Shown one piece after another: positions 34,123-47,676 of a stretch of 64,000 nucleotides of DNA. The DNA is from Mesobacillus jeotgali (GTDB taxonomy: Bacteria > Bacillota > Bacilli > Bacillales > Cytobacillaceae). The stretch covers positions 622,001 through 686,000 of the forward strand of contig NZ_CP134494.1 in the NCBI RefSeq assembly GCF_031759225.1, read 5' to 3'. The translations under genes were made by a program, and so were the position numbers. The notes beneath the pieces were generated by a model, which made no database searches, was not told the origin of the DNA, and saw only the letters and a list, made by a program, of their open reading frames with translations. How positions within the stretch are numbered: position 1 is the first letter of the stretch; each line of letters begins with the position of its first letter.

Positions 34123-35469
34123 TTAAACAAATAGGTTAAGCAATAAGATGAATCCTAGTCCTGCTACTGAAATAATTGTTTCAAGCAGTGTCCATGTTGC
34201 GAATGTTTCTTTCATGCTAAGACCGAAGTATTCTTTGAACATCCAGAAGCCTGCGTCGTTCACGTGTGAAGCGATCAAGCTTCCTGCGCCAGTTGCAAGA
34301 ACAACCAGGGCAAGGTTCACATCTGTCTGGCCAAGCAATGGAATGACAAGACCAGCTGTTGTCAATGCTGCCACAGTTGCAGATCCCAGTGAGATACGCA
34401 GGATCGCCGCGATGATCCATGCCAGCAGGATTGGTGAAAGGGAAGTTCCTTTGAACAGTTCAGCTACATAGTCGCCAACTCCGCCGTTGATCAAGACTTG
34501 TTTGAAGGCACCGCCGCCACCGATGATCAAGAGCATCATTCCGATGTGGGAGATCGCTGTCGTACATGAGTCCATCACAGTTTTAATAGGAATGTTACGC
34601 GCGATTCCCATTGTGTAAATGGCTACAAGCAGGGAAAGTAACATCGCAGTTCCTGCATCACCGATGAACTGGATTGCTGCAAGGAAGCCATTGTTCTCAA
34701 ATCCCATTGTTTTTTGCAGTAAAGAAATGATTGTTGCGATAGACATTAAGATAACTGGTAGTAGTGCTGTGAAAACGCTGATACCGAAACCTGGTGTTTC
34801 TTCAAGTTTGAAAGTCTTCTGCTCGCCTAGAGAAGCGATGTTTCCTGTTTTGTTAAAAGATTCTGGTACTAGTTTTTTAGCAATCTTCGTAAATACTGGC
34901 CCAGCCAGGATGACAGTTGGGATTGCAATGATAAAGCCATAAAGCAATACTTCACCAATGTTTGCGCCATACTCACCAGCGATTACTGTTGGACCAGGGT
35001 GAGGAGGCAGGAAGCCGTGTGTGACTGATAAAGCAGCAGTCATTGGAATACCAAGATACAAAATAGAAATCTTTAATTCTCTTGAAATCGCAAATACGAT
35101 TGGAATCAATAATACTAAACCTACCTCGAAAAATAGAGCAACACCGATGATGAATGAAGCAGCTACGACTGCCCATTGGATGTTCTTTTCACCAAATTTG
35201 TTCACAAGAGTCATTGCGATTCGCTGGGCTCCGCCCGAATCCGCAATCAATTTACCAAGCATCGCACCCAGACCGAAGATCAGTGCTAAGTGGCCAAGAG
35301 TTCCGCCAAGTCCAGCTTCGATTGTTTTAACAATTTCATCTAATGGCATGCCAAGTGCTAAAGCGACACCAAATGATACGATGATTAAGGAAATGAATGT
35401 GTTGAGCTTAAGGCCCATGATTAATAATAATAGAGCTAAGATACCAATTGCTACAATAACCAATGGCAT
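34123..35469 (-). CDS. gntP: gluconate permease GntP
   Basis: The 448-residue protein has about twelve to fourteen membrane helices and matches the GntP family through GLGAMLGKLIADSGGAQRIA, FFEVGLVLLIP and THGFLPPHPGPTVIAGEYGANIG. It imports gluconate with protons. It is the third gene of the gntR-gntK-gntP operon, 187 bases after gntK. The B. subtilis gntZ gene is not present behind it. Confidence 0.92.
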   Translation of the reverse strand: MPLVIVAIGILALLLLIMGLKLNTFISLIIVSFGVALALGMPLDEIVKTIEAGLGGTLGHLALIFGLGAMLGKLIADSGGAQRIAMTLVNKFGEKNIQWAVVAASFIIGVALFFEVGLVLLIPIVFAISRELKISILYLGIPMTAALSVTHGFLPPHPGPTVIAGEYGANIGEVLLYGFIIAIPTVILAGPVFTKIAKKLVPESFNKTGNIASLGEQKTFKLEETPGFGISVFTALLPVILMSIATIISLLQKTMGFENNGFLAAIQFIGDAGTAMLLSLLVAIYTMGIARNIPIKTVMDSCTTAISHIGMMLLIIGGGGAFKQVLINGGVGDYVAELFKGTSLSPILLAWIIAAILRISLGSATVAALTTAGLVIPLLGQTDVNLALVVLATGAGSLIASHVNDAGFWMFKEYFGLSMKETFATWTLLETIISVAGLGFILLLNLFV

Positions 35470-35499
35470 TGTAATTTCCCCCTAAGATGTTTAATTGTG

Positions 35500-35513
35500 C
35501 CCGCTATAGCGGG
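35500..35513. promoter_or_regulatory. 14-bp palindrome upstream of gntP
   Basis: CCCGCTATAGCGGG is a perfect palindrome 31 bases before the gntP start, in the gntK-gntP space. It may be an operator or an mRNA hairpin that tunes gntP. The rest of this 187-bp space holds several short TCTTTGATA/CTCTGATAG repeats. Confidence 0.5.
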
Positions 35514-35656
35514 GTATTTCCTCTGTAAAATAAAGCGCTAACATTTTTGTGCGGGGATCAAATGTCCCCTTATTAAAGATTGATTATGAGGCGATCACTA
35601 AGTGTGATTCTTTTTTGCAGTGATGCCTTATTTAATCAAACTTCTTTGATAATCCC

Positions 35657-37192
35657 TTATCGAATCAGGCTTCTCTGATAGTTTGCGATTCTCGAATAAT
35701 CCTGTTCCAGTGCCCGGGATAAGCTGATGAAAATCGGCACGAGCTGTCTGTATTCTTTTGCCGCTTCTTCGTTCGGCGTGTGCTTGTGGGTGCTGCCGAT
35801 CATCTCGGAAGCAACTTCAAATGAGTCAATTTTACCTGTTGCATAGAGTCCGAGGATGCAAGCACCAAGGCAAGAGCTTTCATAGCTTTCCGGAACGACC
35901 ACCTCGATGTCAAAAATATCGGACATCATCTGGCGCCACACATCTGATCTTGCAAAGCCGCCTGTAGCCTGGATTCGTGTAACCGGGCTTTCCATCGCTT
36001 CCGTAAGCGCTAAGAAAACGGTATACAGGTTGAAAATGACACCCTCTAATGCGGCACGGATCATATGCTCTTTTTTATGGGACATCGTCAGTCCGAAAAA
36101 GGAACCGCGGACATCAGGATTCCATAAAGGAGCACGCTCACCAGCAAGGTATGGATGGAACAGCAAACCTTCCGCTCCCGGCCTTACGCGTTCAGCGATT
36201 TTTGTTAAAACATTGTAAGGATCGATGCCTAAACGCTTTGCCGTTTCGACCTCAGATGCTGCGAATTCATCGCGGATCCAGCGAAGGACCATTCCGCCAT
36301 TGTTGACAGGACCGCCGATGACCCAGTGATTCTCGGTCAGGGCGTAGCAGAAAATGCGGCCTTTTTCATCGGTTTGCGGCTCGTCGATGATCGTACGGAT
36401 TGCACCGCTTGTCCCGATCGTGACCGCAATCTCACCTTTGCCAATCGCATTGACGCCGAGGTTGGAAAGGACACCGTCACTTGCTCCAATGACGAAAGGA
36501 GTTTCCGGTTCAATCCCGACTTGCTTCGCTAATTCTGGATTGCAATTCGTGAAGGTTTTTGTTGTCGGTACAAGCTCGGATAATTGGTCTTTCGTGATCC
36601 CCGCAATTTGCAGAGCCTCTTCATCCCATTCCAGCTTTTTAAGATTCATCATCCCCATCGCTGACGCAAGCGAGTGGTCAACCACATACTGGTCAAAGAA
36701 CTTTTTAAAAATAAATTCCTTGATCCCGATATATTTCTTCGCTTTCGCAGCAATTTCTGGACGCTCATTCACGATCCATGTGATTTTGCTTAATGGCGAC
36801 ATCGGATGAATCGGCGTTCCCGTGCGCTTGTAAATTTCGTGTCCGTTCAGTTCTGTTTTGATTTTGTGCGTCCAAGCTTCACTGCGGTTATCCGCCCAGG
36901 TGATGCATGGAGTAAGCGGCTGATCATTTTCATCTATCGCAATGACGCTATGCATTGCGCTGCTGAATGAAATGAAAGCCAGCTTTTTTTGCTTATTGTG
37001 TTTCATGATCTTCGTAATGGCAGTCAGGACCGCCATATAAATTTCTTCAGGATCTTGCTCGGCTGTTGAGATATCCGGCGTATGAAGCGGGTATCCGATG
37101 TTCTCCTGCTGGATGACTTCGCCTTTTTCGCTGAAAAGGACAGCCTTGGTACTAGTCGTACCGATGTCGACCCCTAGCATATATTCAGTCAC
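35657..37192 (-). CDS. gntK: gluconokinase GntK (FGGY family)
   Basis: The 511-residue kinase converts gluconate to 6-phosphogluconate. It begins MLGVDIGTTSTKAVLF (phosphate-binding loop) and has both FGGY halves, with GASDGVLSNLGVNAIGKGEIAVTIG and ATGGFARSDVWRQMMSDIFD typical of gluconokinases. The start overlaps the gntR stop by eight bases, so translation is probably coupled. The product enters the pentose phosphate pathway. Confidence 0.92.
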   Translation of the reverse strand: MTEYMLGVDIGTTSTKAVLFSEKGEVIQQENIGYPLHTPDISTAEQDPEEIYMAVLTAITKIMKHNKQKKLAFISFSSAMHSVIAIDENDQPLTPCITWADNRSEAWTHKIKTELNGHEIYKRTGTPIHPMSPLSKITWIVNERPEIAAKAKKYIGIKEFIFKKFFDQYVVDHSLASAMGMMNLKKLEWDEEALQIAGITKDQLSELVPTTKTFTNCNPELAKQVGIEPETPFVIGASDGVLSNLGVNAIGKGEIAVTIGTSGAIRTIIDEPQTDEKGRIFCYALTENHWVIGGPVNNGGMVLRWIRDEFAASEVETAKRLGIDPYNVLTKIAERVRPGAEGLLFHPYLAGERAPLWNPDVRGSFFGLTMSHKKEHMIRAALEGVIFNLYTVFLALTEAMESPVTRIQATGGFARSDVWRQMMSDIFDIEVVVPESYESSCLGACILGLYATGKIDSFEVASEMIGSTHKHTPNEEAAKEYRQLVPIFISLSRALEQDYSRIANYQRSLIR

Positions 37193-37913
37193 TTTTCTCC
37201 ACTCCCTTGGAAAGCGTTTGTTGCGATATCCAAAGGTCGTCTACTTTACCTTGAACATCATCAAAATTTTGGTGTAAGGATTTAATCATCAGGTCGCGAT
37301 TCTTCGTTTTGATGGCTTCAATATAAAGCTCGTGATTTTCGAGGATGCGATCGAAATCCTCATATTTTTCTTCGATCCTTGCCCGCATCGATAAAAGTAT
37401 GAAAGCTTCCATGACGGGCTTCGTGTTATCCCAGATCATTCTGATATAAGAATGGTTGATGGCCCGGATGATCGTTTCATGGAAAAGAACATCCTGAAGG
37501 CTGAACTCGTCGGCATCCTTGTACTTGATGGCAATTTTCATCATTTCGAGAATTTTGCTCAGTTCAACTACCAAATTCGTTGTATCTATTTTTATGAGAC
37601 GTTCAAAAACAAATGATTCAATCAATAACCGGACATCGTAAATCTCTTCGATATCCTTTTCAGTGAGGCCGATGACCACGGCACCCATTCTTTCCAGGCG
37701 GATCAGGTTTTCAGCTGAAAGAATTTTAAGCGCTTCACGGATCGGTGAACGGCTAACGTTAAAATCAGCAGCCAGTTTGTTCTCCGAAAGGATGGCACCG
37801 CTTTCAATCAAGCCCGAAATAATTTGCATTCGCAGCTCACTCGCAACCCGGTCACCCGTTGAAGCCTTAGAAAGCCATTTTTGCGGATAAAGAAAATTAC
37901 TGTTTTCCGTCAT
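37185..37913 (-). CDS. gntR: gluconate operon repressor GntR
   Basis: The 242-residue protein has an N-terminal winged helix (about 18-85, with ENKLAADFNVSRSPIREALKIL) and a FadR-type C-terminal ligand domain (about 95-225). It is the first gene of gntRKP. The start is ATG 37913 after AGGAAGGTGAGAAA. A longer frame to 38057 runs through the promoter and is not used. A perfect B. subtilis-type GntR operator lies in its promoter, so it is autoregulated and released by gluconate. Confidence 0.92.
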   Translation of the reverse strand: MTENSNFLYPQKWLSKASTGDRVASELRMQIISGLIESGAILSENKLAADFNVSRSPIREALKILSAENLIRLERMGAVVIGLTEKDIEEIYDVRLLIESFVFERLIKIDTTNLVVELSKILEMMKIAIKYKDADEFSLQDVLFHETIIRAINHSYIRMIWDNTKPVMEAFILLSMRARIEEKYEDFDRILENHELYIEAIKTKNRDLMIKSLHQNFDDVQGKVDDLWISQQTLSKGVEKSD

Positions 37914-37939
37914 TTTCTCACCTTCCTGGTTAATCAAGT

Positions 37940-37957
37940 ATACTTGTATACAAGTAT
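37940..37957. promoter_or_regulatory. GntR operator
   Basis: ATACTTGTATACAAGTAT is an 18-base perfect palindrome identical to the established B. subtilis GntR operator. It lies just downstream of the -10 box and covers the expected start of transcription. Confidence 0.93.
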
Positions 37958-37983
37958 TATAAAACGAATACAAAAAAATGCAA
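37956..37983 (-). promoter_or_regulatory. SigA-type promoter of gntRKP
   Basis: On the reverse strand TTGCAT (37983-37978) and TATAAT (37961-37956) are 16 bases apart. The -10 abuts the GntR operator and the -35 overlaps a cre site. Confidence 0.75.
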
Positions 37984-37992
37984 GCGTTTTCT
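37978..37992. promoter_or_regulatory. cre site (CcpA) of the gnt operon
   Basis: ATGCAAGCGTTTTCT fits the consensus WTGNAANCGNWNNCW at every position and overlaps the -35 box, so CcpA bound there would block transcription when glucose is present. Confidence 0.85.
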
Positions 37993-38078
37993 ATTATGAT
38001 TATTATGGCAAAATCTTTTGTGGTCATTCGAGGATGGAGGGATTTTACTGGTGGCAAGGGTGTTGAGGCGGAACATGT

Positions 38079-39163: not shown

Positions 39164-40069
39164 TTATTCGTAATATCGCCTATTAAAATCACCAATGTAG
39201 GTAAGGTTATCTTTTAATATTCTTCTAAGGGTTTTCTTAGACAAAATGCCGCCACTCCAATCAAATATAGTCTGCGTTGTAACCTTAAATTCAGGAAACA
39301 GCAGTTGAAATTCCTTAACAGTTCGGACAACAGCGGTATCAATATTCCCCGTGTGGCCACAGTGACTGCAAATGAATTTGCTTTTACTATGAAATTCACA
39401 AAACCCTCCGCATTCCCCACAAATAACCCCCTTCCTCAACAGTTCAAAATCATAACCTGGCACTTTTGAATACGGTGACTTCGTAATATGCAATGACAAT
39501 AATGCTTCGGCCAATTTGGTATGTTTGCTATTCAGCTTCGAAGAGGTTCTGTTCATTTTATCCATAAAGCGGTTGAGTTGGTTTGGCAAAACAATGGGTG
39601 ATTTCAATGGTGCTTGCAGAAGGGCGAATTCCGGGTTGATGAACACGAGGTGAGGTTCAAGAGGAATGTAGAAGCCAAGTTCCTTGAGCAGTTGTTTAAG
39701 GAGTGATTCTGCGCGGCTTAGTTGGTGGAGGGGGTTTTTGGTTTCTTTGCCGGCGGCAGTCTTGAATTTGTCTCCATCGAGATAGTAGTCCCCTTCAAGA
39801 TTCTTCACTTCAAAAAGGTGCAGACGGTCCTGTGTGATCACGAAGGAGTCGATTTGAAAAAGGGTGCCATTCACTTCCAGCAACAGGTCGTTGATAATGA
39901 GACTTTCAACTCGATGATTCGTAAACCATTGGTCGAATTGCACTTCACCTTCATAGCCTTTCTCCAGTGTCCACAGGTATTGCGCATCTTTCTCTTCCAA
40001 TTCCATCCGTGGCTGAAGGGATTGCAAGATTACTAATTCTTCTGGTTTGGTTCTTTCTTTTAAGATCAT
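39164..40069 (-). CDS. NERD (nuclease-related) domain protein with zinc ribbon
   Basis: The 301-residue protein has an N-terminal NERD domain (about 35-150) with the pattern GYEGEVQFDQWF, then IDSFVITQDRLHLFEVKNLEG, in which Asp, Glu and Lys form a restriction-endonuclease-like core. A zinc ribbon follows near 215-240 (CGECGGFCEF, then CSHCG), and a short helix-turn-helix-like end contains GGILSKKTLRRILKD. A DNA-processing role is likely but unproven. It starts at ATG 40069 after GGAAGTGG. It is flanked by the 52-bp array. Confidence 0.8.
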   Translation of the reverse strand: MILKERTKPEELVILQSLQPRMELEEKDAQYLWTLEKGYEGEVQFDQWFTNHRVESLIINDLLLEVNGTLFQIDSFVITQDRLHLFEVKNLEGDYYLDGDKFKTAAGKETKNPLHQLSRAESLLKQLLKELGFYIPLEPHLVFINPEFALLQAPLKSPIVLPNQLNRFMDKMNRTSSKLNSKHTKLAEALLSLHITKSPYSKVPGYDFELLRKGVICGECGGFCEFHSKSKFICSHCGHTGNIDTAVVRTVKEFQLLFPEFKVTTQTIFDWSGGILSKKTLRRILKDNLTYIGDFNRRYYE

Positions 40070-40145: not shown

Positions 40146-40174
40146 TTGATTTAAATAAAACATTCTGATACTAT
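40146..40174 (+). promoter_or_regulatory. SigA-type promoter ahead of the lysine riboswitch
   Basis: TTGATT (40146-40151) and TACTAT (40169-40174) are 17 bases apart. Transcription would begin about 15-20 bases before the first conserved riboswitch bases. Confidence 0.7.
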
Positions 40175-40196
40175 TAACCTAATTTCATATGATCTT

Positions 40197-40381
40197 ATCA
40201 GATCGGTGAGGTAGAGGAGCGAATAACAAGAGTAGTCCATCGGAGTATGACATCGTTGATGATGGATGAAAGGGTTGTTTGCCGAAGCGTGGCCAGGGTC
40301 AGACTGGTTACTGCTGGGATGCTTCCTGAATAAGGAGCAGACTGTCATGCTTGTTTTTGTGCATGGAGAACTACTGATCGA
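40197..40381 (+). ncRNA. lysine riboswitch (L box)
   Basis: All the conserved L-box blocks occur in order: GTAGAGGAGCGAA, AAGAGTAGTC, GGATGAAAGGG, GCCGAAGCG, TGCTGGG, GACTGTCATGC and GCATGGAGAACTAC. Variable stems lie between them (CCATC/GATGG, GCATG/CATGC). The element is followed by a strong intrinsic terminator, so it should stop transcription when lysine is bound. The downstream genes are an amidohydrolase and an AGCS symporter, not a known lysine biosynthesis or LysP gene. Confidence 0.95.
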
Positions 40382-40403
40382 AATGGAGGATAACGTATAT
40401 TGT

Positions 40404-40444
40404 AAAAAGCAATGATAGGTTATTTTCTATCATTGCTTTTTTGC
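40404..40444 (+). terminator. riboswitch-controlled terminator
   Basis: AAAAAGCAATGATAG (40404-40418) pairs with CTATCATTGCTTTTT and runs into a T-tract. It lies 23 bases after the aptamer and 120 bases before the amidohydrolase start. Confidence 0.92.
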
Positions 40445-40488
40445 ATGCGTAGAGCTTTTCCACTATCCCCTTCAGTCAAACTCCTTTT

Positions 40489-40504
40489 GCATACGTCCGT
40501 ATGC
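40489..40504. promoter_or_regulatory. palindrome in the amidohydrolase leader
   Basis: GCATACG and CGTATGC are perfect arms around TC, between the riboswitch terminator and the ribosome site. It could be a second control point or a chance hairpin. Confidence 0.45.
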
Positions 40505-40563
40505 GCACTCCGAACATTTTCAAGCATGACCTGTCTCACTTTTAACCAAAGGAGAGAATCATC

Positions 40564-42159
40564 TTGAGAACCATCTACACAAACGGAACGATCTACACAT
40601 TCAATTCACGCAAACCTATTGTCCAGGCCGTCGTCATCGAACATGGCCGTTTCATCGATATGGGAACCTCAGCTGATATGGTGCTGCAATGGGGCAGCAA
40701 CGCGCAAATCATCGACCTTGAGGGAAAGACTGCGACTCCTGGCTTGATTGACAGCCATCTTCACTTATCCATCATGGCCGACAGTTTTATCAATCTTGAT
40801 TTTGTTGGAGTCACTTCCAAGCATGACATGCTCGCTAAAATCCAGGAAAAAGCCAGTCAGCTTGAGCCAGGCCAGTGGATAGTCGGCAGCAGCTGGGACG
40901 AGAATCTTTTTACCGATGGGGGAATTCCAACGATTGCTGAGCTGGATTATGTGGCGCCAGCCAACCCGCTGTTTATGACGAGGACATGCCTTCATGCGGC
41001 AATCGTCAACAGCAAGGCGCTTGAAGTGAGTGGCTATCACCCAGCGATTTCGGTTCCGGAAGGCGGAACGATCGTGTTGGATGAATGGACGAAGCAGCCG
41101 ACCGGACTGTTCCTGGAATCTGCGATGAACCTGATCAGGCAGCATATTCCTGAGCGCTCGTACGATGATTGGAAAAACGCGATGCGCCAGACGATGCATT
41201 TTGCGATGAGCAAAGGGCTGACGAGTGTCCATACGAATGACCCGCTCTATCTTGGCGGCCTTGAAATGACATGGAACATTTTCAATGAGCTGCTGAACGG
41301 GGAACAGGTGGGCTTGCGAAGCAATCTTCTGATCAACCATGAGTTTTTACCAAATCTAAAAGAAGCCGGAATGTACACGGGCTTTGGCAATGACACTTTG
41401 AATATCGGCGCTGTTAAAATTTTTGCCGATGGAGCGTTCGGTAGGAGGACTGCGCTGCTGTCAGAAGAATACAGCGACGCGCCGGGTCACTACGGCAATG
41501 CGATGTATGACCAGGAGCAGATGTACGAAATCGTCCGTGGTGCAAGAGAACTGGACATGCCGATTGCGGTCCATACGATTGGCGACAAAGCGCTCGAAAA
41601 TATGCTGGACGTGCTCGATAAATTTCCAGCCGCCGCGTATCGCGACAGGCTGATCCATGCTCAGGTTCTGCGGGAGGAACTGATTCCTCGCCTGAAAGCG
41701 CCAAGCCGGATTGCTGATATCCAGCCGCGCTTCATCGCCAGCGATTTCCCGTGGGTGCAGGAGCGCCTTGGAGAAAAGCGGATCAAGCTATCATATGCAT
41801 GGAAAACGCTGATGGAAGCTGGCGTCATTTGTGCTGGCGGCTCTGACTCTCCGGTTGAGCCGGTTGACCCAATCCTCGGAATCCACGCAGCCGTGACACG
41901 CAAAAAGCCGGGTGAAACCCATGAAGGCTATGTGCCAGAACAGAAGCTGTCGATGGTGGATGCATTCCGCCTGTTCACCGAGCTGGGTGCGTATCCAACG
42001 AACGAAGAGACCATTAAAGGCACGATTGCTCGCGGCAAACTTGCCGATATGACGGTATACTCCGCGAATCCATTTGAAATGGCAGATCCAGATGAACTGT
42101 TAACGATGGACATCGAAATGACGATCATCGGCGGGGAGATCATGTATCGGAAGAACTGA
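40564..42159 (+). CDS. YtcJ-like amidohydrolase (amidohydrolase_3 family)
   Basis: The 531-residue protein has the metal-dependent amidohydrolase barrel: His65 and His67 in GLIDSHLHLS, further His residues in VHTIGDKALE and LIHAQVL, and Asp in CAGGSDSPVEP. This belongs to PF07969, whose members hydrolyse amide bonds in diverse small molecules. TTG 40564 follows AAAGGAGAGAATC. It has no signal peptide, so it is cytosolic. It is the first gene behind the lysine riboswitch and is followed by a symporter gene. The substrate may be a lysine-containing amide, which is inference from context. Confidence 0.88.
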   Translation: MRTIYTNGTIYTFNSRKPIVQAVVIEHGRFIDMGTSADMVLQWGSNAQIIDLEGKTATPGLIDSHLHLSIMADSFINLDFVGVTSKHDMLAKIQEKASQLEPGQWIVGSSWDENLFTDGGIPTIAELDYVAPANPLFMTRTCLHAAIVNSKALEVSGYHPAISVPEGGTIVLDEWTKQPTGLFLESAMNLIRQHIPERSYDDWKNAMRQTMHFAMSKGLTSVHTNDPLYLGGLEMTWNIFNELLNGEQVGLRSNLLINHEFLPNLKEAGMYTGFGNDTLNIGAVKIFADGAFGRRTALLSEEYSDAPGHYGNAMYDQEQMYEIVRGARELDMPIAVHTIGDKALENMLDVLDKFPAAAYRDRLIHAQVLREELIPRLKAPSRIADIQPRFIASDFPWVQERLGEKRIKLSYAWKTLMEAGVICAGGSDSPVEPVDPILGIHAAVTRKKPGETHEGYVPEQKLSMVDAFRLFTELGAYPTNEETIKGTIARGKLADMTVYSANPFEMADPDELLTMDIEMTIIGGEIMYRKN

Positions 42160-42162
42160 TAA

Positions 42163-42345
42163 TCAGCAAAGCAACAAAGATCAACGATTAGCAAAACAAC
42201 AAAGATTAACAATCAGTGAAGCAACAAAGATTACAATCAGCAAAGCAACAAAGATCAACGATTAGCAAAACAACAAAGATTAACAATCAGCGAAGCAACA
42301 AAGGTCAATGCACAGCGAAGCAACAAAGATCAACGAACAGCAAAG
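42163..42345. repeat. seven tandem 25-bp units between the two riboswitch-controlled genes
   Basis: CAACAAAG recurs at 42172, 42197, 42222, 42246, 42271, 42296 and 42321, with a period of 25 (once 24). Each unit is close to AGCAAAGCAACAAAGATC plus AACGATT. A short, purine-rich, C/A-rich RNA with little structure would result. Frames within it are chance. Confidence 0.92.
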
Positions 42346-42355
42346 GGGAGACAGC

Positions 42356-43825
42356 ATGGATCACGTGTTATCGAGTTTATCAGCATTCTTATGGGGGTTG
42401 CCTTTAATCCTCACAATGGTTTTTGTCGGGCTTTATTTTACAATCGGGAGCGGCTTCTTTCAGTTCAGGCACCTGCCGCATATCCTGAAGGCGACCTTCA
42501 GCAGTATTTTTAAAAAGGAAAAGACAGAGGATGGGAAGAAAGGGGTCATCTCATCCTTTGAAGCAGTATCGACAGCGATCGGCGGTTCTGTTGGCGTCGC
42601 GAACATAGGTGGTGTTGCCACAGCCATCGCGGTGGGAGGACCCGGTGCGATCTTCTGGATGTGGATCACCGCTTTGCTCGGGATGATCATCAAGACGGTT
42701 GAGGTCACCTTGTCGGTTTATTACCGAAGCACGGATGAAAATGGCGACCCGTACGGCGGGCCGACTTATTATATGGAAAAGGGGCTTGGGGAAGAGCGCA
42801 ATTTTAAATATTGGATTTTCCCTGCAGTCATTTTCGGATTCGGTATTTTTTCAACATTCTTTATTACGATGCAAAATTACACAATCTCTGAAGCGATCAG
42901 TTCTACATTTGATATTGGGATGATCCCTGCATCGATCCTCTTCTCGATTCTTGTCTATTTTGTCGTCTGGGGCGGGATCAAACATATCGGGAAGCTGGCG
43001 TCGAAGCTTGTTCCGGCGATGGTTCTGTTCTATGTTGTAGCAGGTCTGTTCATCATCATTTCGAATATTACTCAAATGGGCAATGTATTTGCATTGATTT
43101 TCGACGGAGCATTTGGCGGAACGGCTGCGGTTGGCGGCTTTGCCGGTGCGGCGGTTGCCCAGGTCATCCACATGGGGATGGCGCGCTCGGTTTACAGCAA
43201 TGAAGCAGGCTGGGGAATTTCTCCGATGATCCACTCGACTGCGAAGGTCGACCATCCGGTAAAACAGGGCATCTGGGGTGCTTTTGAGGTATTCATAGAT
43301 ACCATCATCGTGTCTTCAATCACGGCATTCACGATCATTATCACCGGAGCATGGTCCACAGGCCTGACCGGAGCAGACCTGACGCTTACGGCGTTCGAAA
43401 CGGGAATCGGTTCATTCGGCCGGATCACGATTGCCGTATCGATCCTGTTATTCGGTCTGACGACGGTGACAGGCTGGTACTCTTATTACGAAATTGTGCT
43501 GCGCCACCTTTTAAAAGGAAAATCAAAGGTGAAAAACAGAATCCTGAAAACATTCATTTATTTGTACCCAATCCCAGGGACGCTGATGGTCGTCTACGGA
43601 GTCGTATTCGGCCTGCCAGGGCAGACGGTATGGTATTTCGCGGACATCTCATCTGCCATCCCGACTTTCATCAACGTTGTCGTCATCCTCATCCTCGGAA
43701 AGCAATTCTTCGCGCTGTTGAAGGATTACAAAGCCAGGTATCTCGGAATCGGAAAAATCGATCCGGACTTCGCGCTGTTTTATGAAGACAAAGTGGAGAG
43801 GGACAAGAAGAAAAAAGCAAGTTAA
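42356..43825 (+). CDS. AGCS-family sodium:amino acid symporter
   Basis: The 489-residue protein has about ten to eleven membrane helices and the alanine/glycine:cation symporter signature: GSGFFQFRHLPHI near the start, GVANIGGVATAIAVGGPGA, and MGMARSVYSNEAGWGISP. The family imports alanine, glycine and related amino acids with sodium. ATG 42356 follows AAAGGGGAG. It shares the transcript of the riboswitch-controlled amidohydrolase, so the real cargo may be lysine or a lysine derivative, which is inference only. Confidence 0.9.
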   Translation: MDHVLSSLSAFLWGLPLILTMVFVGLYFTIGSGFFQFRHLPHILKATFSSIFKKEKTEDGKKGVISSFEAVSTAIGGSVGVANIGGVATAIAVGGPGAIFWMWITALLGMIIKTVEVTLSVYYRSTDENGDPYGGPTYYMEKGLGEERNFKYWIFPAVIFGFGIFSTFFITMQNYTISEAISSTFDIGMIPASILFSILVYFVVWGGIKHIGKLASKLVPAMVLFYVVAGLFIIISNITQMGNVFALIFDGAFGGTAAVGGFAGAAVAQVIHMGMARSVYSNEAGWGISPMIHSTAKVDHPVKQGIWGAFEVFIDTIIVSSITAFTIIITGAWSTGLTGADLTLTAFETGIGSFGRITIAVSILLFGLTTVTGWYSYYEIVLRHLLKGKSKVKNRILKTFIYLYPIPGTLMVVYGVVFGLPGQTVWYFADISSAIPTFINVVVILILGKQFFALLKDYKARYLGIGKIDPDFALFYEDKVERDKKKKAS

Positions 43826-43833
43826 TTAGAAGG

Positions 43834-43868
43834 CGCTTGGATTTTAATTAAATCCAAGCGTTTTTATT
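43834..43868 (+). terminator. intrinsic terminator of the riboswitch operon
   Basis: CGCTTGGATTT (43834-43844) pairs perfectly with AAATCCAAGCG (43850-43860), followed by TTTTTATTT. Confidence 0.9.
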
Positions 43869-44005: not shown

Positions 44006-45745
44006 ATGATGAAGATCAAAAAGCGATTCAAGGTTAAGCAGGTAAAGCTCAATACGAAGTTCACGGTACGGAAAAAACTATTTGCTGGCTTCTTTTCTGT
44101 GCTGGCGCTGCTGGCGTTGGTAGCGGTGATCACCAACCTTCAATTCGGCAGGATGAACAGCCAGTACTCGTCATCGATTGCTGACCGGATGGAAAAGCTG
44201 AATCAGATTGTCGAGATGAAGGATGCCATTATGAGGGAGCAGCTGGCTCTTCAAAAATATATGGCGAATAGCGATGGTGAAAGTCTGATTGAATTTGAAG
44301 GCGCTGTTGAAGATTTTAAAAAGACCTCTCAGAAATACATGAGCTCAACGGAATCGGCGGAGGGGAAAAAGGTAGGAGAGAACCTTATCGCAGCAGAGGC
44401 ACAATATTATGAGATGGCTTCAGAGGCCTTTATTTTAATAAGGGATGAGCAAACGGTCAAGGTCAGATTATTGATGCAGGAAAAAGGAAATCCGCTGATT
44501 TTTAGCCTGAATTCTGCCGCTGAAGATGCAATCGAGTACCAGCAGGATGCCCTGAATGCTACGAGTGAAACTTTATCCGGCGAAGTACAAAAAGTAGCGC
44601 TGCTCATCATTTTGCTCAGTGCGGCAGCTTTTATCATTGGAACAGCGATTGCTGCCTATATCAGCCGGATCATTTCCAAGCCTGTCCAGCTAGTGTCTAA
44701 CGCAGCTAAGCAAATGGCAGATGGTAACCTGGCTATTGAAAAAATCAATGTGAAAAATAATGATGAAATCGGCCAGTTGGCTGCGGATTTCAATGAGATG
44801 GCAACAAACTTGCGGAAATTGATTTATCAGGTAAGCAGTACATCTGAGCAGGTTGCGGCATCTGCTGAGGAAATGATGGCAAGTGCTGACCAGACCAATT
44901 CGGCCACGAACCAGGTAGCAACAGCCATCCAGGAAGTTGCCGGCGGTGCAGAACTGCAAAGCAAGAATACGGAAGAAAGTGCGAAGGCAGTAGAAGAGAT
45001 GGCCGGAGGAATCCAGAGGGTAGCCGTCACCACATCCACAGTCGCAGAGTCCGCAGCTGATACGACGAAACAGGCAATGCTCGGACATGAATCTCTGGAA
45101 AAAGTGATCGAAAAGATGAAGACGATCAATCATACGACAAGTGAAACGAATGCCGTCATCAAAGATTTGGATCGCAAATCAGCTGAGATTGGCAAAATCA
45201 TTGAGGTCATTACCGGGATTGCTGACCAGACCAACTTACTTGCTTTGAACGCAGCGATTGAAGCCGCTAGAGCCGGTGAACATGGAAAAGGCTTCGCAGT
45301 CGTCGCGGATGAAGTCCGAAAGCTGGCCGAACTTTCAAGGCAGTCAGCGAGCCAGATCTCCGGCTTGATTGAAGTGATTCAAAAAGAGACCCACCAGGTT
45401 GTTGAAATGATGAACAAAGGAACGGCGGAAATTTCCGAGGGAACTTTATTGGTAGAAGACACTGGAAGAACATTTGATGAGATTCTTAAATCAATCGAAA
45501 ATGTCAGTTCGGAAATCCAGGAAGTCTCCGCGATTTCAGAAGAAATGTCGGCAAGTGTCATGCAGGTGAACGCTTCTATCGACGAGGTAACTAAAATCGC
45601 CCGCGGCTCCGTCGCAAGCACAGCAGAAATCGCATCCGCAACAGAAGAGCAGCTGGCTTCAATGGAAGAAGTCGCATCATCATCCGCATCACTCGCACGG
45701 CTTGCAGAGAACCTGAGAGAGATGGTCGCGAAGTTTAAAGTTTAA
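44006..45745 (+). CDS. methyl-accepting chemotaxis protein
   Basis: The 579-residue receptor has a first membrane helix (about 25-45), an extracellular four-helix-bundle sensor (about 47-195), a second helix (about 197-219), a HAMP domain (about 220-272) and a signalling coiled coil containing [21 protein letters not shown], the CheA/CheW-binding tip. AAGGAG precedes ATG 44006. A SigD promoter and a dedicated terminator make it a single-gene motility unit. The ligand is unknown. Confidence 0.93.
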
Positions 45746-45791: not shown

Positions 45792-47676
45792 GTGCGCCCG
45801 GCATGGGTGCAGTCTATAGGGTGTAAGTCCCGAGCCATGAAGGCAGTAGTAGTGGTTAGCTTAACGCAAGGGTGTCCGCGGTGACGCGGAATCTGAAGGA
45901 AGCGAGCGGCAAACCTCCGGTCTGAGGAACACGAACTTCATATAAGGCTAGGTACCATTGGATGAGTTTGCAGAACAAAACAAAGTCCTTACTGCCGAAG
46001 GTGGTACAGAGTAAATGAAGCAGATAGATGGAGGGAAAGACTGTACTCTTACCCGGGGAGGTCTGATTGGAAAGCCAAGTACACTTGGTAACCTATCTAG
46101 CAATAGATAGCTGAACAATCAGAAGTCAGCAGAGGTCATAGTACTTTACCGGCTCGAGACGGTAAGGGAAGGACTGAACAATTAGGAAGAACGAGAACTA
46201 GGCATACAATTCCTGTGTAGAAGCAGACAATCCGAAAGGACTTACTTGAAGGAGGAAGTGGTGAATCCACAGGGGACTTCATGAGGGTGGAGCAGGAATA
46301 ACATAATTAGATTTCTACGTTCACGTCGAAAGGAAATATCACATGTTAATGAATCTGATTCTATCACGGGAAAACTTAATAGAAGCACTTAAACGTGTGG
46401 AGAAGAACAAAGGGAGTCACGGCATAGATGGAATGTCCGTAAAATCCCTACGAAGACATCTCTATGAGAACTGGGACACCCTTTGTGATTCTTTAAGGAA
46501 AGGTACCTATCAACCTAACCCAGTACGTCGAGTCGAAATCCCGAAACCGAACGGTGGAGTAAGGTTACTTGGAATACCTACCGTGATAGATCGTTTCATC
46601 CAACAGGCAATCGCCCAAGTTTTAACTCCGCTTTTTGACCCAACCTTCTCGGAACATAGTTATGGGTTTAGGCCAAGCCGAAGAGGCCATGACGCTGTAC
46701 GTAAAGCAAGGGGATATATAAGTGAAGGTTACAGATGGGTGATTGACATGGACTTGGAGAAGTTCTTTGACAAAGTGAATCATGACAAGCTGATGGGGAT
46801 ATTGGCAAGCAGAATCCAAGACCGATTGGTCTTGAAGCTAATTCGAAAATATCTCCAAGCAGGAATCATGATAAATGGTGTAGTCTACGATGCAGAAGAA
46901 GGAACACCACAAGGAGGTCCCCTGAGCCCTCTTCTTTCGAATATACTTTTGGATAAGCTTGATAAAGAACTAGAAAGGAGAGGTCACAAGTTTGTCCGAT
47001 ACGCCGATGATTGTAATATTTACATGAAATCGAAGAAAGCTGGAGAACGAGTAATGAACTCCATTACATGCTTCATTGAGCAGAAATTAAAGCTCAAAGT
47101 AAACAGAGGGAAATCAGCGGTTGACCGCCCGTGGAAACGAAAATTCCTTGGCTTTAGCTTTACGGTTAATAAGAAACCGAAGGTTCGAATAGCCAACGAA
47201 AGTGTTAAAAGGCTAAAAGCTAAAATACGAAAGTTAACATCCCGTTCTAAACCAATCCCCATGGAAGTTAGAATTGAGAAATTGAATCAATTTCTAACGG
47301 GATGGTGTGGATATTTTGCATTAGCTGATACACCAAGTAAATTCAAAGAATTTGATGAGTGGATTAGAAGAAGACTCCGTATGATTGAATGGAAACAATG
47401 GAAGAACCCGAAGACAAGAGTAAGAAAACTCAAAAGTCTTGGCGTTCCAGACCAAAAGGCATACGAATGGGGAAATTCCAGAAAGAAATTTTGGAGAATT
47501 GCCTCAAGTCCAATCTTACACAAAACCCTCGATAACTCTTATTGGAGTCATCGAGGGCTCAAAAGTCTATATCAAAGATATGAATTTCTACGTCACACTT
47601 AATTGAACCGCCGTATACCGAACGGTACGTACGGTGGTGTGAGAGGTCGGGGGTTAGTCACCCCCTCCTACTCGAT
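45792..47676 (+). mobile_element. group IIC intron with its reverse transcriptase
   Basis: The 5' end GTGCGCCCGGCATGGGTGC and the following GTGTAAGTCCCGAGCC are typical of bacterial group II introns. The 3' end shows domain V (47604-47645, beginning GAACCGCCG with the CGC triad of class C) and a domain VI hairpin GGGGGTTAGTCACCCCC followed by TCCTACTCGAT. The exact 3' boundary is uncertain by a few bases. It lies directly behind a terminator hairpin, the usual target of class C introns, and its ORF is intact, so it may be mobile. Confidence 0.9.
46343..47602 (+). CDS. ltrA: group II intron reverse transcriptase/maturase
   Basis: The 419-residue protein has reverse transcriptase blocks with IPKPNGGVRLLGIPTVIDRF, GFRPSRRGHDAV, EEGTPQGGPLSPLLSNILL and the catalytic FVRYADD, followed by the maturase (X) domain about 300-400 (PSKFKEFDEWIRRRLRMIEW). 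It lacks an HNH endonuclease, as class C proteins do. It splices and mobilises the surrounding intron. AAGGAAAT precedes ATG 46343. Confidence 0.93.
   Translation: MLMNLILSRENLIEALKRVEKNKGSHGIDGMSVKSLRRHLYENWDTLCDSLRKGTYQPNPVRRVEIPKPNGGVRLLGIPTVIDRFIQQAIAQVLTPLFDPTFSEHSYGFRPSRRGHDAVRKARGYISEGYRWVIDMDLEKFFDKVNHDKLMGILASRIQDRLVLKLIRKYLQAGIMINGVVYDAEEGTPQGGPLSPLLSNILLDKLDKELERRGHKFVRYADDCNIYMKSKKAGERVMNSITCFIEQKLKLKVNRGKSAVDRPWKRKFLGFSFTVNKKPKVRIANESVKRLKAKIRKLTSRSKPIPMEVRIEKLNQFLTGWCGYFALADTPSKFKEFDEWIRRRLRMIEWKQWKNPKTRVRKLKSLGVPDQKAYEWGNSRKKFWRIASSPILHKTLDNSYWSHRGLKSLYQRYEFLRHT

What the first reader, a model, noticed from the sequence alone, without database searches (positions are those of the whole stretch)
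40146..43868. Lysine riboswitch in front of an amidohydrolase and an AGCS symporter
A complete L box with its terminator precedes a PF07969 amidohydrolase and a sodium:amino-acid symporter, which end together at a terminator. Known L-box genes are lysine biosynthesis (lysC, lysA, dap) or lysine transporters (LysP, YvsH and NhaC-like LysW). An off-switch on this pair suggests a salvage route: the symporter brings in lysine or an acylated or amide-linked lysine when lysine is short, and the amidohydrolase frees it. The riboswitch identity is seen in sequence; the pathway is inference.
Basis: partly seen in the sequence, partly recalled or inferred. Interest (0 to 1): 0.78.

Follow-up and report, generated by a model that had tools for sequence, protein, structure and literature searches.

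The report
Lysine switch on an amidohydrolase gene
A lysine-sensing RNA switch in a bacillus sits in front of an uncharacterised amide-cleaving enzyme, and in about a third of the related loci found also an amino-acid importer, which suggests that these bacteria recover lysine from chemically capped lysine when lysine runs short.

Summary
A complete lysine riboswitch (RF00168, 118.3 bits, window 40204-40381) with a terminator and a competing antiterminator precedes a PF07969 amidohydrolase (AH, 40564-42159) and an AGCS symporter (42356-43825). The conserved unit, however, is riboswitch plus AH: I found it in 27 distinct loci (Mesobacillus group, Virgibacillus, Oceanobacillus), and the symporter follows directly in 10 of them. 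The 24 AH leaders aligned covary as an L box, form one clade beside NhaC-type leaders, and decay to relics in some relatives, which fits one gain with later losses. Some AH homologues without the switch lie beside roc genes, a YfcC-like carrier, M20 hydrolases, IlvA or the same symporter. The only sequenced enzymes I saw reported to hydrolyse N-epsilon-acyl-lysine (Streptomyces epsilon-lysine acylases) are also placed in the YtcJ-like family, but they reportedly lack the carboxylated lysine that AH keeps. Best reading: an off-switch on an enzyme that frees lysine from an amide-linked derivative, perhaps N-acyl-lysine, with the symporter as optional importer. Regulation is well supported by conservation; lysine response and substrate are inference. 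New variant of a known kind: a new target of a known riboswitch.

The parts
40169..40174 (+). Minus-10 element TACTAT of the proposed leader promoter, preceded by TGA (extended minus-10 form); a possible minus-35 TTGATT lies at 40146-40151, 17 bases upstream
   Evidence: Sequence; across 25 leaders the minus-10 columns are 87% conserved, the minus-35 columns 59%, as low as background. Not listed by the generic scan.
40204..40381 (+). Lysine riboswitch aptamer (L box)
   Evidence: RF00168, 118.3 bits, full length; covariation in 24 leaders
40383..40430 (+). Antiterminator: 40383-40394 pairing with 40419-40430
   Evidence: Folding of the truncated transcript; columns 40382-40403 are 96% conserved in 25 leaders
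40404..40442 (+). Intrinsic terminator GCAATGATAG..CTATCATTGC plus T run
   Evidence: in 24 leaders 95% of cells of its 13-pair helix are paired, with G-C to A-U double changes
40564..42159 (+). AH: YtcJ-like amidohydrolase (PF07969), 531 aa, TTG start after AAAGGAG
   Evidence: AF2 model mean pLDDT 93.0; closest solved folds 3igh and 3icj
42161..42345 (+). Array of 25-bp tandem repeats between AH and the symporter
   Evidence: Tandem Repeats Finder
42356..43825 (+). AGCS-family sodium:amino-acid symporter of a divergent subfamily (GGSVGVANIGG motif)
43834..43866 (+). Terminator of the operon
   Evidence: Sequence; inverted repeat also listed (minus strand)

Best explanation
A lysine-binding riboswitch turns off transcription of AH, and of the symporter where it is present, when lysine is plentiful. 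With lysine bound, the extended P1 helix forms and occupies part of the antiterminator's 5' arm, so the terminator at 40404-40442 folds and stops RNA polymerase. Without lysine the antiterminator forms and AH is transcribed. [quoted passage not shown] the AGCS symporter imports that derivative or free lysine in the lineages that have it. Shown here: the riboswitch, its structure and platform by conservation, and the long association of one leader clade with AH. Inferred: lysine binding, the switching, the amide substrate, and what the symporter carries.
For: Riboswitch at 118.3 bits. Of the AH matches in 101 relatives, all 18 loci at 80% identity or more (window included) carry it at 105-118 bits. 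Of 80 named AH loci 19 carry it by nhmmer and L096 has a degraded copy of 38.2 bits. 21 of 67 pairs change on both sides against 10.5 in shuffles, 89.2% of cells paired (84.8% in shuffles). The 24 AH leaders form one clade (99/98) on the side of three NhaC-type leaders and apart from 26 lysC leaders. All L-box rows lie in one protein clade of 35 rows (L074 relabelled). Leader relics remain in L089 and L097. Minus-10, 5' end, aptamer and platform are conserved (0.86-0.96) while the stretch after the terminator is not (0.58). Within 6 kb of AH in the 80 loci: AGCS directly downstream in 12, YfcC-like carrier in 2, M20 in 8, glutamate dehydrogenase in 4, P5C dehydrogenase in 5, sigma-54 activators in 7, IlvA in 11 (labels from one or two scanned members per cluster). 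SmELA, an epsilon-lysine acylase, is described as YtcJ-like (PMC10699109, passages). dapH and an adjacent M20 gene are intact, so AH need not serve biosynthesis.
Against: No binding, transcript or enzyme data exist. PF07969 is functionally broad (metallo-bile-salt hydrolases, formamide deformylase and others; PMC13081902, passages), so the family does not fix a substrate. AH keeps the position of the carboxylated lysine, K285, in 60 of 60 rows, whereas epsilon-lysine acylases are reported to lack it (PMC11511702, passage). 17 of 27 L-box loci have no symporter beside AH, and its subfamily also lives apart from AH. Context genes in homologues point to amino-acid catabolism in general (IlvA, P5C dehydrogenase), not to lysine alone; only small minorities of the 80 loci have each of them, and the loci are related. 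60 of 80 named homologues have no detected L box. In the structure count P1 hardly varies (5 of 6 pairs never), so it gives no support, and helix 5 is only 75% paired.
Confidence: 0.55

Rival explanations
1. The switch is really for lysine uptake: the symporter imports free lysine, and AH is only a passenger at the head of the operon.
For: L boxes on transporters are common (PMC5584792, passages), and another amino-acid riboswitch (glycine) is known to control AGCS-family genes (PMC5829553, passages). The symporter differs from its paralogues at the GTGN motif, and is the commonest gene directly downstream of AH (12 of 80).
Against: In 17 of 27 L-box loci there is no symporter beside AH, and in the five L-box genomes of that kind that were searched (L079, L082, L087, L090, L092) no copy at E below 1e-120 lies elsewhere. 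The switch is kept with AH alone.
Confidence: 0.15
2. AH acts on another amide in a pathway that drains or protects lysine (for example a compatible-solute or catabolic step), and the switch balances pools and does not salvage lysine.
For: Some homologues lie next to roc genes and sigma-54 activators and, in Virgibacillus, near an ectoine-hydrolase-like gene. Acetylated lysines are compatible solutes in some salt-tolerant bacteria, Planococcus and Salinicoccus among them (PMC4685198, passages).
Against: The platform is of the off type, so expression should be highest when lysine is scarce, which suits supply better than use. The ectoine-type gene was seen only in the two Virgibacillus loci L082 and L083.
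Confidence: 0.2
3. AH is an extra deacylase of the diaminopimelate branch, that is, biosynthetic.
For: L boxes often precede biosynthetic genes; L-box operons with an 'amidohydrolase' are listed for Thermotogales and one with an 'amino hydrolase' for Macrococcus (PMC5584792, passages).
Against: dapH and an adjacent M20 gene are intact elsewhere in the genome. Four same-genus genomes (G003, G008, G011, G012) lack this AH (two have only a 33% relative) and keep two L boxes.
Confidence: 0.07
4. The leader is a fossil: the aptamer no longer binds lysine.
For: Relics occur in relatives: L096 scores 38.2 bits, and L089 and L097 keep only pieces that the covariance search does not report at E up to 5.
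Against: Scores of 105-118 bits in 18 loci, compensatory changes in aptamer and terminator, and a conserved antiterminator arm.
Confidence: 0.03

Closest known systems
Lysine riboswitch (RF00168) upstream of lysC, NhaC-type (lysW), lysP/gabP, yvsH
   Same: Aptamer, core and terminator platform; AH leaders group with three NhaC-type leaders
   Different: In the passages of PMC5584792 that I saw no AGCS symporter and no PF07969 target is named; its 'amidohydrolase' entries are inside Thermotogales lysine operons, family not stated
C. difficile L box - yfcC - M20D amidohydrolase (PMC11477304, passages)
   Same: Lysine riboswitch over an amino-acid carrier plus an amide hydrolase; a YfcC-like carrier and M20 genes also stand next to AH homologues in L121 and L142
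   Different: Other transporter family, other hydrolase fold (M20, not PF07969), other gene order; the YfcC label in L142 is under NCBIfam's cut-off (268 of 500 bits)
Epsilon-lysine acylases SmELA, ScELA, SgELA (EC 3.5.1.17; PMC10699109, PMC11511702, passages)
   Same: SmELA is described as YtcJ-like; the metal ligands reported for SgELA (HxH, two His, Asp) have counterparts in AH
   Different: Reported to lack the carboxylated lysine; AH has K285.
3igh / 3icj, Pyrococcus metal-dependent hydrolases of unknown function
   Different: Function unknown; archaeal
Mycoplasma L box - oligoendopeptidase F operon (PMC5584792, passage)
   Same: Lysine riboswitch over a hydrolase and a membrane protein; salvage is my reading, the authors propose transport
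   Different: Peptidase, unrelated family
Glycine riboswitch on AGCS-family genes (PMC5829553, passages)
   Same: Amino-acid riboswitch with terminator upstream of a symporter of this family
   Different: Other ligand; here the lysine aptamer and AH stand first

Membership tests
Lysine riboswitch RF00168 | Covariance-model score over the gathering score, full length | tested here: met
   118.3 bits, cut-off 30, positions 1-182
Lysine riboswitch RF00168 | Conserved five-helix structure with compensatory changes | tested here: met
   21 of 67 pairs (aptamer and terminator) with double changes, shuffled mean 10.5; slid controls 3-9. P1 nearly invariant, helix 5 only 75% paired
Lysine riboswitch RF00168 | Expression platform (terminator / antiterminator) | tested here: met
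Lysine riboswitch RF00168 | Binds lysine and lowers transcription | not testable with these tools
   Needs in-line probing and reporter assays
Epsilon-lysine acylase (EC 3.5.1.17) | YtcJ-like (PF07969-type) amidohydrolase | tested here: met
   364.4 bits to PF07969; several sources name close homologues YtcJ
Epsilon-lysine acylase (EC 3.5.1.17) | No carboxylated lysine in the metal site (PMC11511702) | tested here: not met
   K285 present in 60 of 60 rows, aligned with a conserved lysine of 3igh and 3icj; carboxylation itself is by analogy
Epsilon-lysine acylase (EC 3.5.1.17) | High sequence identity to SmELA/SgELA | not tested
Epsilon-lysine acylase (EC 3.5.1.17) | Hydrolyses N-epsilon-acyl-L-lysine | not testable with these tools
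   Needs an enzyme assay
AGCS (TIGR00835) symporter | Score over the curated cut-off | tested here: met
   397.7 bits, cut-off 272.65
AGCS (TIGR00835) symporter | Carries alanine or glycine with sodium | not testable with these tools
   The motif GTGN of 6cse and of the three other AGCS proteins of this genome is GVAN here
DapL-type N-acetyl-diaminopimelate deacetylase | M20 peptidase family | tested here: not met
   AH is PF07969; the M20 gene beside dapH is elsewhere

The most novel reading that the evidence does not exclude
This is a riboswitch-controlled acyl-lysine salvage route: AH is an N-epsilon-acyl-lysine deacylase of a second YtcJ-like type that keeps the carboxylated lysine; the AGCS subfamily imports acyl-lysine; and when the enzyme came under a lysine switch (leader related to NhaC-type leaders) its specificity moved from ornithine-type to lysine-type amides, marked by Asp258 to Asn at the end of a barrel strand. 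N258 is found in 19 of 19 L-box rows and 12 of 69 other rows, 11 of these 12 in the same clade.
Probability: 0.25. Interest if true: 0.65.

Novelty: new variant of a known kind. Interest (0 to 1): 0.5.

Why it matters
PF07969 is a very large family with few characterised members (110,952 UniProt sequences were used in PMC13081902, passage). A ligand-specific riboswitch held in front of one subfamily across several genera gives a direct clue to substrate (lysine is the likely product) and makes an enzyme-function question testable. It would also add an amide hydrolase of a different fold to the short list of lysine-riboswitch targets that look like salvage and neither biosynthesis nor plain uptake.

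Tried and rejected

Rows dropped or relabelled before counts: L141 (split AH, M. boroniphilus) is in the leader counts but not in the protein tree or residue-258 count because its pieces are under 400 aa; L074 was marked as lacking the L box and is counted as L-box bearing afterwards. With that error the protein tree needs 8 changes of the L-box label (5 forced by starred branches; shuffles 16.7), so one gain with several losses is the simplest reading, not proven; repeated transfer is not excluded. In one search the non-AH leaders are only the best 30 of the matches plus two from the own genome, so NhaC leaders are represented by three.
Full report
WHAT IS THERE. The window lies in a 4.63-Mb genome whose nearest named AH loci are Mesobacillus. 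A lysine riboswitch aptamer matches RF00168 end to end at 40204-40381, 118.3 bits. Downstream come a hairpin terminator (40404-40442), a PF07969 amidohydrolase called AH here (40564-42159, TTG start) and an AGCS symporter (42356-43825), followed by a terminator. The genome has two more L boxes, before an aspartokinase gene and before an NhaC-type antiporter gene.

IT IS A CONSERVED SWITCH. Among 101 relatives searched with AH the 18 loci at 80% identity or more (window included) all carry the L box; the next fetched ones (L021 70%, L023 61%, L024 54%, and L025-L033 at 41-58%) do not. Four same-genus genomes without this AH (G003, G008, G011, G012) have two L boxes where the others of the genus have three, G001 four. 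Across 24 leaders the structure has 89.2% of cells paired and 21 of 67 pairs with changes on both sides (shuffles 10.5; slid versions 3 to 9); the terminator helix is 95% paired, helix 5 only 75%, and P1 hardly varies. A hairpin plus T run was found after the aptamer in 25 of 25 leaders by a lenient search, though in L092 the best hit was another hairpin and in L012 it was weaker.

HOW THE PLATFORM WOULD WORK. Folding the whole leader gives an extended P1 and the terminator; folding it without the terminator's 3' arm gives the antiterminator, 40383-40394 with 40419-40430. The 5' end, aptamer, antiterminator arm and terminator are 86-96% conserved, against 57-60% for upstream background and the stretch after the terminator. 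That is the usual off-switch layout: lysine bound, P1 formed, terminator formed. Lysine binding itself is not shown. The generic promoter and terminator scan did not list these elements.

ORIGIN. The 24 AH leaders form one clade (99/98) on the side of three NhaC-type leaders; 26 lysC leaders form the other side (midpoint root). In the AH protein tree all L-box rows fall in one supported clade of 35 rows, 19 of them with the switch. One gain from an NhaC-like leader with several losses is the simplest reading; transfer between Virgibacillus, Oceanobacillus and the Mesobacillus group is possible.

THE SYMPORTER IS OPTIONAL. It follows AH directly in 10 of the 27 L-box loci and in 4 loci without a detected switch (L086, L103, L105, L108). 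In L071, L072, L074 and L075 the next gene is the chemotaxis receptor that here lies at 44006. In 16 genomes reached through named loci 8 have a close copy and each is the one beside AH. In a sample of 398 genomes of the class 9 have a copy at E below 1e-140 and 3 of the 9 lie beside AH. So the pair is real and recurrent, but the switch does not need it. The subfamily departs from its paralogues at the GTGN motif (GVAN here); what it carries is unknown. Glycine riboswitches on AGCS genes are known (PMC5829553, passages).

WHAT AH MAY DO. The AF2 model is confident (mean pLDDT 93.0) and closest to 3igh and 3icj, hydrolases of unknown function. The six positions that align with their metal site, H65, H67, K285, H337, H365, D428, are invariant in 60 of 60 rows; reading them as ligands, and K285 as carboxylated, is by analogy with the family. 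Some homologues without a switch sit among amino-acid genes: P5C dehydrogenase, ornithine transaminase and glutamate dehydrogenase directly upstream in L118, L124 and L139 and nearby in L147; a YfcC-like carrier (PF03606; NCBIfam YfcC under its cut-off) directly upstream in L121 and L142; M20 genes in 8, IlvA in 11 and sigma-54 activators in 7 of the 80. Labels come from one or two scanned members per cluster, the loci are related, so the counts are not independent, and no random-locus control was run. In Virgibacillus L082 and L083 a class-III aminotransferase, a permease and an ectoine-hydrolase-like gene follow.

THE LINK TO ACYL-LYSINE. Passages of PMC10699109 state that SmELA, an epsilon-lysine acylase, was classified as YtcJ-like, and that SgELA is specific for N-epsilon-acetyl-lysine. 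PMC11511702 says that epsilon-lysine acylases lack the carboxylated lysine, which AH keeps, so AH is not filed as a member. PMC4685198 notes that acetyl-lysines accumulate in some salt-tolerant bacteria such as Planococcus and Salinicoccus. C. difficile has an L box before yfcC and an M20D amidohydrolase (PMC11477304), a parallel arrangement with unrelated parts. Five positions separate the 19 L-box rows from 32 Neobacillus-type rows; one, residue 258 at the end of a barrel strand, is Asn in all 19 and in 12 of 69 other rows. This is probably one event on the tree, a lead only.

VERDICT. Observation confirmed, interpretation partly supported. The regulatory claim is strong by conservation, the salvage claim plausible (about 0.55), the acyl-lysine route in full a guess worth testing (about 0.25).

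Noticed in passing
window 45875-47676: Group II intron (RF02001, RF01998, RF00029 matches) with a reverse transcriptase/maturase frame at 46343-47602, just past the chemotaxis receptor gene.
   Followed up: partly
window 42161-42345: 7.4 copies of a 25-bp repeat (and a 74-bp higher unit) between AH and the symporter; the unit resembles the stretch before the symporter's ribosome site. The spacer is about 50 bp in L069.
   Followed up: partly
window 34123-38057 (-): GntP permease, FGGY kinase and GntR regulator, a gluconate-type cluster.
   Followed up: no
window 39164-40069 (-): NERD-domain protein divergent from the L box; its cluster is the upstream neighbour of AH in 6 of the 80 named loci.
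   Followed up: partly
L088 and L105; L095 and L108: Ornithinibacillus californiensis and O. massiliensis each hold two AH paralogues, one with the symporter and one without.
   Followed up: no
L072: Record titled Chryseobacterium sp. ISL-80 holds Mesobacillus-type DNA; the label is probably wrong.
   Followed up: no
L022 / L141: AH of Mesobacillus boroniphilus JCM 21738 is split into two frames in the draft assembly, with an L box of 109 bits upstream.
   Followed up: no
L082:7792-12446, L083:9410-13589: Class-III aminotransferase, permease and ectoine-hydrolase-like gene (TIGR02993, under its cut-off) after AH in Virgibacillus.
   Followed up: partly
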